Source: Myxococcota bacterium
Lineage (GTDB): Bacteria > Myxococcota_A > UBA9160 > UBA4427
Length of the DNA stretch: 64,000 nucleotides
Assembly (NCBI GenBank): GCA_030748735.1
Contig: JASMLK010000025.1
Location: 1-64,000, forward strand
Direction of reading: 5' to 3'
This document shows, piece by piece, positions 35,484 to 39,405 of this stretch. Under the pieces are notes generated by a model. The model saw only the letters and a list, made by a program, of their open reading frames with translations, had not been told where the DNA came from and did no database searches. Positions within the stretch are counted from its first letter, which is position 1; every line of letters starts with the position of its first letter. The translations under genes were made by a program, and so were the position numbers.

Positions 35484-36545
35484 ATGTCTTCTCTCGAAGG
35501 CCTTTCCAACGATCAGCTGCTGACCGAAACCCGCAAGCTCGTGCAGCGCGAGCGCGGGTTCGAAGTCGAACTCGTGAGGCATCTGGGCGAAGTGGAGTCA
35601 CGGCGGCTGTATCTCGGCCGGGCGTGTTCTTCGATGTTCGACTACTGCGTCAAGGTCCTGGGCTTTTCGGAGTGCGTGGCGTACAAGCGGATTGCAGTTG
35701 CGCGAGCTGGGCGGCGATTTTCCGGCTTGCTGGATGCGTTGCACAAGGGAGAGATTCATCTCACCGGTGCGAGTTTGATCGCTCCACATCTGGCAGATGG
35801 TGAGCTGGGAGATTGGTTGGCAATGTCACGCGGTGCGACCGCGCGCGAGATCAAGCAGCGGATCGCAGAGCGAAAGCCCCAGGAGCCAGGCTCGAACTTC
35901 GTTCGCAAGCTTGCGGTGAAGCCGCCGGCGGCACAGGTAGCCTGGAGCTGCGTTTATGGTTCGGAAGAAACGAGAGAGCGGAGCCTGCCCGCGCAAGCGA
36001 AAACGAACCTGCCGGCCGAGAACAGCTCGGCACCCACGACCGCCCGCGCTCCTCACCCCGAACCCCTCGGCGAATCTCGCTACTCCGTGCGCTTCGTTGC
36101 CGACGCGGACGTGCACGCCCAGCTGGAAGAGCTCCGCGACCTGCTCCGCCATACGATCCCCGACGGAGATGTCGGGAAGATCCTCGCGAAGGCGATCGGT
36201 GAGTTGCTCGAACGGGTGAAGAAGCAGAAGGTCGGGACCTGCACCAGGCCGCGCACGCCCCGCGCTTCATCGGCGGAATCGCCTTCCCGCCACATCCCTG
36301 CCGAGATGCGTCGCAGCGTCTGGGAACGCGACGGAGGACGCTGCGCCTATGTATCGCTGGACGGGACCCGATGCGGTGAGACGGGCCGAATCGAGTTCCA
36401 CCACCAGGTCCCGTGGGCCCGCTGTCGCGAACACGAAGTCGACAACATCGCTCTGCGCTGTCGCGCTCACAATCACTACGAAGCCGAGTTGGCGTTCGGT
36501 ACCGAGAAGATGAGCCGGTGGCGGACCGGCACAGGTGATGGGTGA
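35484..36545 (+). CDS. HNH endonuclease
   Basis: IPAEMRRSVWERDGGRCAYVSLDGTRCGETGRIEFHHQVPWARCREHEVDNIALRCRAHNHYEA. Confidence 0.88.
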   Translation: MSSLEGLSNDQLLTETRKLVQRERGFEVELVRHLGEVESRRLYLGRACSSMFDYCVKVLGFSECVAYKRIAVARAGRRFSGLLDALHKGEIHLTGASLIAPHLADGELGDWLAMSRGATAREIKQRIAERKPQEPGSNFVRKLAVKPPAAQVAWSCVYGSEETRERSLPAQAKTNLPAENSSAPTTARAPHPEPLGESRYSVRFVADADVHAQLEELRDLLRHTIPDGDVGKILAKAIGELLERVKKQKVGTCTRPRTPRASSAESPSRHIPAEMRRSVWERDGGRCAYVSLDGTRCGETGRIEFHHQVPWARCREHEVDNIALRCRAHNHYEAELAFGTEKMSRWRTGTGDG

Positions 36546-37005: not shown

Positions 37006-37026
37006 CGTCGGCCCGTCACGTTTCGG
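37006..37026 (+). repeat. 21-bp direct repeat copy B
   Basis: cgtcggcccgtcacgtttcgg; overlaps the 3' end of gluQ. Confidence 0.85.
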
Positions 37027-37987
37027 GGGGTGTCTCCGGCGAAGCGAGTGTGAGTTCGCGACCGTCCCATTCGACGAGTCGATCTTGCTGCGACACGCGC
37101 GACCAATCGAAGTCGCCGAGTAGCGCACGAGGTGTCATGGGTCGGGGTTCTTCGACGAGCCCCGCCGCACAAGCGAGTAGGCCACACAGGGCCGCGGCGT
37201 CATAGCGAGAGACGAGTTCATCGAGCGCCACTGCGCCGTGGAACTTCGCGAGCTTTCGGTCGCGTCGTTCGAGGAGCAACAGGTGGTGGCGATAGGTCGG
37301 CGTCTCGAAGCCGAGCTGCTGCTGCAAGCGCACCTGCGTCGCGGTGCCCGCCGCAAGATCTCGCCCCCGCACAACGCGGGTGACGCCTGCCTGCGCATCG
37401 TCGACCACGCTCGCGAGGTGGTACGCCACGGCGCCGTCGCGCCGGCGCACGACAGGGTCACCGAAGACGGCAAGCGGATCCTGCTCGATCTCGGCACCAC
37501 CGAGGTCGCGGAGCACCACCGTGCCAGCGGGGAGCCGGACTCGAAGTGGCTGCGTCGAAGCACGCCAGCCACCCTGGTCCCGCGACGGAAGCTCTCGCTC
37601 GCGGCAATGGCCGTCGTAGCGGAACCCGCCGTCGGGAGTCCGCACCCCGAGCTCGCGCAGCCGCGACCGCGAGCAAGCGCACGGATACAGGGCCCCCGCT
37701 TCCGCCAGCCGATCGAGGGCCTGCTCGTGCGCGGCCGAAGCTTCCGACTGGAGAGAACGTTCGTCCCAATCGAGCCCCAGCCACGAGAGCGCGTCGCCAA
37801 TCGCCTTTGCGTACGTGGGTTTACAACGACCGGGGTCGAGGTCCTCGAGCCGCACGACGAAGCGGGCTCCGCTCGAGCGGGCGTCCAGCCAGCACAGCAG
37901 CGCGGCGAGCAGCGTGCCGGGGTGCGGCCCTCCAGTCGTCGACGGAGCAAAGCGACCGACACCCGCGTGGGCGGGCTCTTCACTCAT
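37016..37987 (-). CDS. gluQ: Glutamyl-Q tRNA(Asp) synthetase
   Basis: [53 protein letters not shown] Zn motif; short length typical of GluQ-RS. Confidence 0.9.
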
Positions 37988-38189
37988 GAGCTGTCAACCG
38001 TGACGGCCAAATGCTCCATTAATTGCACCTTTTTGTATCTTTTTTCCCGCACCCGCAACACCACAGGGATCCTTCTGTTCGCCGTGTCGGATCTCACGCT
38101 GGGAGTGGCCTGAGTTGCGTTTCGGGCTGGTTCATGCATGCTCATCTGAAGCGAGGGCGCACGAGATCCTCGAAGGAGGCTTGGTAACT

Positions 38190-38381
38190 ATGTCGGATTC
38201 CAACGAAGTGCTGGTCGTGGCCTCGAAGGTGAAGGCCTACATCAAAGACAAAGGCGACATGAAGACCTCGGCGAGCGTGCTTTCCGCTCTGTCGGACCGC
38301 ATCCGTAGCATGTGCGAGGAAGCGATCGAAAACGCTCGCAGCGACGGTCGAAAGACCATTCTCGATCGCGATATCGGCTAG
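38190..38381 (+). CDS. Single histone-fold protein (bacterial histone-like, 63 aa)
   Basis: SKVKAYIKDKGDMKTSASVLSALSDRIRSMCEEAIENARSDGRKTILDRDIG; histone RKTI..xDI C-terminal signature; RBS gaaggagg. Confidence 0.82.
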   Translation: MSDSNEVLVVASKVKAYIKDKGDMKTSASVLSALSDRIRSMCEEAIENARSDGRKTILDRDIG

Positions 38382-38499: not shown

Positions 38500-39405
38500 T
38501 CATTGCCCAACACAGTCGCGCAGAGCGGCTTCGAGGGTTGGGTATTCGAACGCGTAACCGTATTCGAGCGCGCGCTCGCACGCGACGTGCTGCCCGGGCG
38601 AGACGTAGCGTGCGAATTCGCCCAGTGGGAACCACACGGCGAAGAGCGGCACGGGGAGAAACGCGGGGCGTCGCAGCACTCGCCCCAGCGTCGCTGCGAA
38701 CTCGCCCATCCGCGCTACACCCGGGGCCACCACGTTGAGGGGCCCTTCGATGTCTTCTCGGTCGAGGGCCAACAAGGCGAGCGCAACCGCGTCGCGCTGG
38801 TGAACCCACGGGAACCAGCGGGCCTTCGGACCGATCGGGCCGCCGAGCCCCAGTCGAAAGGGCAGCAACATGTTGGCGAGCGCGCCGTCGTGTCGGCTGA
38901 GGACCACGGCAAAGCGCAGGCACGCCACGCGAACCCCACTGGCTGCGGCTTCCCGCGCGGCCGCTTCCCAGTCACAGCAGAGCGTGGCCAGGAAGTCCTG
39001 GCCGGGCGCGCTTTCTTCCGTGAGGACTTCTTCGTCGCGGGTGCCGTAGTAGCCGGTCGCCGACGCGCTGATCAGGGCGCAGGGCCGCGGCTCGGCGGAC
39101 GCGATCGCGCGAACCAGGACCTTTGCGCTTTCGATTCGGCTGCTGACGAGGCGGCGTTTGCGCGCGGCGTTCCAGCGGCCCCCGCCGATCGATTCTCCCG
39201 CGAGGTGGACGACAGCGTCACAACCCGCAACCGCACCCTGCCAGTCGCCGTCGCTCGTAACGTCCCCGGCGACCCACGTTTCGCCCGGGCGCGAGCTTTC
39301 GCGCGCGGCACGACTGAGCGCCACGACCTCGTCCCCTCGCTCGAGCAGTGCATCACAGAGCGCGGCACCGACCAGGCCCGACGCTCCAGTGACGAAGACG
39401 CGCAA
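38500..39405 (-). CDS. TIGR01777 family (YfcH-like) NAD-dependent epimerase
   Basis: RVFVTGASGLVGAALCDALLERGDEV; AVVHLAGESIGGGRWNAARKRRLVSSRIES; SASATGYYG; TTG start. Confidence 0.9.
   Translation of the reverse strand: MRVFVTGASGLVGAALCDALLERGDEVVALSRAARESSRPGETWVAGDVTSDGDWQGAVAGCDAVVHLAGESIGGGRWNAARKRRLVSSRIESAKVLVRAIASAEPRPCALISASATGYYGTRDEEVLTEESAPGQDFLATLCCDWEAAAREAAASGVRVACLRFAVVLSRHDGALANMLLPFRLGLGGPIGPKARWFPWVHQRDAVALALLALDREDIEGPLNVVAPGVARMGEFAATLGRVLRRPAFLPVPLFAVWFPLGEFARYVSPGQHVACERALEYGYAFEYPTLEAALRDCVGQ

What the first reader, a model, noticed from the sequence alone, without database searches (positions are those of the whole stretch)
38190..38381. 63-aa single histone-fold protein: a candidate bacterial histone
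MSDSNEVLVVASKVKAYIKDKGDMKTSASVLSALSDRIRSMCEEAIENARSDGRKTILDRDIG has the helix-strand-helix pattern and the GRKTI..xDI C-terminal signature of histone folds (compare GRKTIKAEDI in archaeal HMf proteins). It is the size of singlet bacterial histones such as those of Bdellovibrio (Bd0055) and Leptospira. It has a good RBS (gaaggagg) and sits alone between gluQ and a TIGR01777 gene. A singlet implies dimerisation.
Basis: partly seen in the sequence, partly recalled or inferred. Interest (0 to 1): 0.78.

Follow-up and report, generated by a model that had tools for sequence, protein, structure and literature searches.

The report
HBb-type bacterial histone in Myxococcota
The window encodes a genuine 63-residue bacterial histone, a close relative of the crystallised DNA-bending histone HBb of Bdellovibrio; it belongs to a family already described, including from this phylum, so it is real but not a new kind of thing.

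Summary
The 63-aa gene at 38190-38381 (+) is real and the histone reading is right. Its best sequence and structure matches are all to HBb/Bd0055 of Bdellovibrio (phmmer 1e-14, 31/57 identical; AlphaFold2 model pLDDT 86, Foldseek TM 0.84-0.87 to HBb). It keeps the RD clamp and 8 of the 10 main DNA-contact residues reported for HBb, and lacks residues that make face-to-face (Leptospira-type) tetramers. It fits the published 'bacterial dimer' subfamily of alpha3 histones, already reported from Myxococcota_A. It is under purifying selection (dN/dS about 0.05-0.12) and occurs in 21 of 21 family genomes that are at least 90% complete. Most likely it is a dimeric nucleoid protein that bends DNA without sequence preference; that function is inferred from HBb, not shown here. 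The genome also encodes a ZZ-finger histone plus IHF-alpha and IHF-beta, but no HU was found; this holds across most of its class, also where no histone was found. New member of a known kind. Side observation: three genomes of the phylum carry ZZ histones with two histone folds in one chain, a form I did not find in the papers read.

The parts
38190..38381 (+). CDS of the singlet histone, 63 aa, with stop
   Evidence: phmmer E 1.1e-14 to HBb; Foldseek TM 0.84-0.87 to HBb; dN/dS 0.05-0.12
38172..38179 (+). Shine-Dalgarno-like GAAGGAGG, 10 nt before the ATG
   Evidence: read from the sequence; kept in the nearest relative L005
38220..38255 (+). alpha1 (residues 11-22) with K13, K15, K19, which match HBb DNA-contact residues K10, K12, K16
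   Evidence: model; residue map; HBb contacts in PMC11317129
38262..38270 (+). loop L1, K25-T26-S27, matching HBb N22-T23-S24
38271..38342 (+). alpha2 (residues 28-51), expected dimer interface
   Evidence: model; interface by homology to HBb
38343..38375 (+). loop L2 and alpha3: D52, RD clamp R54-D61, K55-T56 and R60, matching HBb D49, R51-D58, K52-T53, R57
37016..37987 (-). gluQ (GluQRS-like), divergent neighbour
   Evidence: PF00749; TIGR03838 243.9 bits, below its cut-off of 276.7; linked in several relatives
38500..39402 (-). TIGR01777 family oxidoreductase, convergent neighbour
   Evidence: TIGR01777 301.6 bits, over cut-off; linked in many relatives

Best explanation
A singlet alpha3 histone of the 'bacterial dimer' (HBb/Bd0055) subfamily. 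Two copies pair through alpha2. [quoted passage not shown] The dimer binds DNA without sequence preference and bends it, as a general nucleoid protein working beside IHF. Shown here: a real gene, purifying selection, a histone fold in the monomer model, conserved contact residues, absence of the face-to-face tetramer residues, near-fixed presence in its family. Inferred from HBb: dimerisation, DNA binding, bending, abundance, importance for growth.
For: Best sequence hits are HBb, 31/57 identical with 8 of 10 reported contact residues and the RD clamp kept. Model pLDDT 86, Foldseek best hits are HBb free and DNA-bound. dN/dS 0.05-0.12. Present in 27 of 30 family genomes and 21 of 21 at least 90% complete. 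Conserved gene order. Published subfamily listed for Myxococcota_A; HBb bends DNA and is indispensable in Bdellovibrio.
Against: No dimer or DNA complex was modelled, and there are no expression data. Two reported contact residues differ (T8 to A11, N22 to K25). Net charge by K/R minus D/E is 0, so DNA binding would rest on a local basic surface. The two HBb papers disagree on bending against end-on coating.
Confidence: 0.8

Rival explanations
1. Same histone dimer, but it coats straight DNA end-on as a sheath, the mode first proposed for Bd0055, rather than bending it.
For: Crystal structure reading in PMC10627809; the contact residues used there are largely kept.
Against: Later crystal, solution and simulation work on HBb supports bending (PMC11317129).
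Confidence: 0.12
2. A face-to-face tetrameric histone that wraps DNA like Leptospira HLp.
For: HLp is the next sequence and fold match (E 9.8e-8, TM about 0.77); Myxococcota are also listed for face-to-face histones.
Against: HLp tetramer residues R49 and N53 align with N48 and D52 here (alignment); HBb is clearly closer.
Confidence: 0.03
3. A histone-fold protein whose main job is pairing with another protein, for example the ZZ histone of the same genome, rather than general DNA packaging.
For: The genome also encodes a ZZ histone with a 52% identical fold; histone folds can heterodimerise (general knowledge); net charge 0.
Against: DNA-contact residues are conserved; one family genome (G008, 91% complete) has the singlet without a detected ZZ histone, and many genomes have a ZZ histone without a singlet.
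Confidence: 0.04
4. A chance open frame or an unrelated small helical protein.
For: General histone models score below their cut-offs.
Against: E = 1e-14 to a solved histone, fold match, dN/dS far below 1, conserved through the family.
Confidence: 0.005

Closest known systems
HBb / Bd0055 of Bdellovibrio bacteriovorus (PDB 8CMP, 8FVX, 9EZZ, 9F0E), type member of the 'bacterial dimer' alpha3 histones
   Same: Length, fold, RKT motif, RD clamp, 8 of 10 main DNA-contact residues; 54% identity over 57 residues
   Different: T8 to A11, N22 to K25; different host lineage, in which no HU was found
HLp of Leptospira perolatii (PDB 9QT0), face-to-face alpha3 histone
   Same: Short singlet alpha3 histone fold, shared SKVKAYIK stretch in alpha1
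   Different: Tetramer residues R49 and N53 are N48 and D52 here
ZZ histones (for example D0LYE7 of Haliangium ochraceum)
   Same: Closely related histone fold; the same genome has one (52% identity)
   Different: The window protein has no zinc finger
Archaeal nucleosomal histones HMfA/HMfB
   Same: Histone fold and RKT..D loop
   Different: Weak match only (E 0.23 for HMfB; TM about 0.6); shorter alpha2, alpha3 only one turn

Membership tests
Bacterial dimer alpha3 histones (HBb type) | Sequence similarity to HBb/Bd0055 above all other groups | tested here: met
   HBb best at 1.1e-14; next group (HLp) 9.8e-8
Bacterial dimer alpha3 histones (HBb type) | RKTxxxD motif | tested here: met
   R54-K55-T56...R60-D61
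Bacterial dimer alpha3 histones (HBb type) | Conserved lysines on alpha1 (HBb K10, K12, K16; positions 11, 13, 17 in the published profile) | tested here: met
   K13, K15, K19
Bacterial dimer alpha3 histones (HBb type) | Lack of the face-to-face tetramer residues (R48 and N52 of the published profile) | tested here: met
   N48 and D52 at the aligned positions
Bacterial dimer alpha3 histones (HBb type) | Short alpha2, one-turn alpha3, histone fold only, no tail | tested here: met
   H28-51, turn 59-61, 63 aa in all; HBb best in Foldseek
Bacterial dimer alpha3 histones (HBb type) | Forms a dimer and no larger assembly | not testable with these tools
   Only monomer prediction was available
Bacterial dimer alpha3 histones (HBb type) | Sequence-independent DNA binding and bending | not testable with these tools
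   Needs EMSA, tethered-particle motion or circularisation assays
Face-to-face alpha3 histones (HLp type) | Tetramer residues R49, N53 and R55 (HLp numbering) | tested here: not met
   Aligned residues are N48, D52 and R54; only the last is kept
ZZ histones | N-terminal ZZ-type zinc finger | tested here: not met
   The window protein is histone fold only; the finger is present in the other gene on contig 110
Archaeal nucleosomal histones | Match to general archaeal histone profiles above curated cut-offs | tested here: not met
   PF00808 17.9 of 21.4 bits; NF043032 26.2 of 50 bits

The most novel reading that the evidence does not exclude
In this Myxococcota lineage the histone singlet has taken over the general nucleoid role that HU plays elsewhere: HU is gone across the class, IHF-alpha and IHF-beta remain, and the singlet is fixed in the family. 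Against it, class members without any detected histone also have only IHF-alpha and IHF-beta, so at least there HU is missing without a histone.
Probability: 0.15. Interest if true: 0.55.

Novelty: new member of a known kind. Interest (0 to 1): 0.3.

Why it matters
It adds a clear, stably kept case of an HBb-type histone outside Bdellovibrio, in a lineage where profile-based annotation could miss it. The combination of singlet histone, ZZ histone, IHF-alpha and IHF-beta with no HU makes it testable, by complementation, whether a bacterial histone can stand in for HU. The finding itself confirms published surveys rather than changing them.

Tried and rejected
Chance ORF: rejected. Face-to-face histone: rejected on residues. 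Histone presence as the cause of HU loss: not supported, because class members without a histone match (G040, G048, G051) also carry only IHF-alpha and IHF-beta. A 57-residue tree places the family singlets near the ZZ histone folds, but it is too short and weakly supported to say whether the singlet arose by loss of the ZZ finger. The promoter and terminator scan gave nothing for this gene. NCBIfam's HU models are E. coli-type with strict cut-offs, so 'no HU' rests mainly on there being only two DNABII genes, each scoring over an IHF subunit cut-off.

Full report
Observation. The ORF at 38190-38381 (+) is exactly as described: ATG to TAG, 63 aa, with GAAGGAGG ten bases upstream. It stands between gluQ and a TIGR01777 oxidoreductase, both on the other strand.

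Identity. A phmmer search of all PDB chains gives HBb/Bd0055 of Bdellovibrio bacteriovorus first (8cmp E = 1.1e-14; 8fvx 1.4e-14), then the Leptospira histone HLp (9qt0, 9.8e-8), 9f2c (HTkC of Thermococcus, 6.4e-6) and archaeal histones weakly. General profiles see it only below their cut-offs: PF00808 17.9 bits against 21.4, NCBIfam archaeal histone 26.2 against 50. The AlphaFold2 monomer model built from 24 relatives has mean pLDDT 86 and pTM 0.64, with helices at 11-22 and 28-51 and a last turn at 59-61. Its five best Foldseek matches are all HBb, TM 0.84-0.87 (query-normalised) over 57-58 columns at rmsd 0.8-1.0, followed by HLp and HTkC.

Residues. Query position n equals HBb position n minus 3. 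The HBb residues with most DNA contacts are N22, R57, S9, T53, T8, S24, K10, K12, K52 and K16 (PMC11317129). Eight are identical here; T8 is A11 and N22 is K25. The RD clamp (R54-D61) and the supporting D52 are kept. The HLp tetramer residues R49 and N53 (PMC12701072) align with N48 and D52 (my mapping of the alignment). This is the pattern published for 'bacterial dimers', which lack the face-to-face tetramer residues (PMC11390915).

Selection and spread. Pairwise dN/dS against nine relatives is about 0.05-0.12 where dS is not saturated. In the 30 genomes held for the family, a singlet at least 72% identical is found in 27, and in all 21 that are at least 90% complete (my tally); the three without it are 76-89% complete. 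One genome of another family in the order (G038) has a 69% singlet. Named relatives from genome contigs are MAGs labelled Myxococcota, Deltaproteobacteria or TMED88, with more distant ones in Spirochaetales and Sedimentisphaerales. The order of genes around it (gluQ, histone, TIGR01777, SDR, MscS-like, UvrA) is partly kept through the family. This agrees with the published survey that lists Myxococcota_A among the phyla with bacterial dimers.

Other histones. The same genome has a second histone-fold gene on contig 110: a cysteine-rich finger that fits the published ZZ type at the N-terminus, a linker, and a C-terminal histone fold 52% identical to the singlet. Such ZZ histones are described. 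In the phylum sample, 95 of 284 genomes have some match to the singlet query; outside the family most lie in longer frames, and most of those I read carry the finger.

HU and IHF. The genome holds two DNABII genes, IHF-beta and IHF-alpha by NCBIfam. Of 40 class members at least 90% complete in the phylum sample, 34 have exactly two, 4 have one and 2 have four. In eight further genomes typed, the two main ones are again IHF-alpha and IHF-beta: G003, G004, G007 and G024 of the family, G046 of the order with a ZZ histone, and G040, G048 and G051, which gave no histone match. Other Myxococcota usually have three or more, the third being a divergent DNABII protein in the two examples typed. So the class seems to lack HU, but this is not tied to the histone. 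The counts come from draft genomes.

Mechanism. By homology the protein should dimerise and bind DNA without sequence preference. HBb was first reported to coat straight DNA end-on (PMC10627809) and later to bend DNA and to be indispensable (PMC11317129). I favour bending. None of this was tested here: only monomer modelling was possible.

Verdict. The apparent class-wide lack of HU and the rare ZZ double histones are the parts least covered by the papers read.

Noticed in passing
L034/L053 (G044, contig 86), L055 (G151, contig 35), L056 (G159, contig 291): ZZ-type finger followed by TWO histone folds in one chain (282-, 284- and 254-aa open frames), in three families of the phylum; 3 of 283 genomes sampled showed a match to both folds in one frame. 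Not described in the papers read. Such a chain could form its own pseudodimer.
   Followed up: partly
Genome G000, contigs 15 and 129 (L004, L003), and its class: Only IHF-alpha and IHF-beta are found and no HU; most members of the class have exactly two DNABII genes while other Myxococcota usually have three or more.
   Followed up: partly
G000 contig 110, 44212-44385 (L033): A ZZ-type finger histone in the same genome as the singlet, with a 52% identical histone fold.
   Followed up: partly
G001 contig 135, 36341 and 253333 (L016, L046): Two singlet histone genes (87% and 77% identical to the window's) in one genome of the same genus; contamination of that genome is given as 6%, so a mixed bin is possible. 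The second copy also lies near gluQ, SDR, MscS and UvrA homologues.
   Followed up: no
window 35484-36545 (+): 353-aa protein with a weak C-terminal HNH endonuclease match below the Pfam cut-off (E = 0.0062).
   Followed up: no
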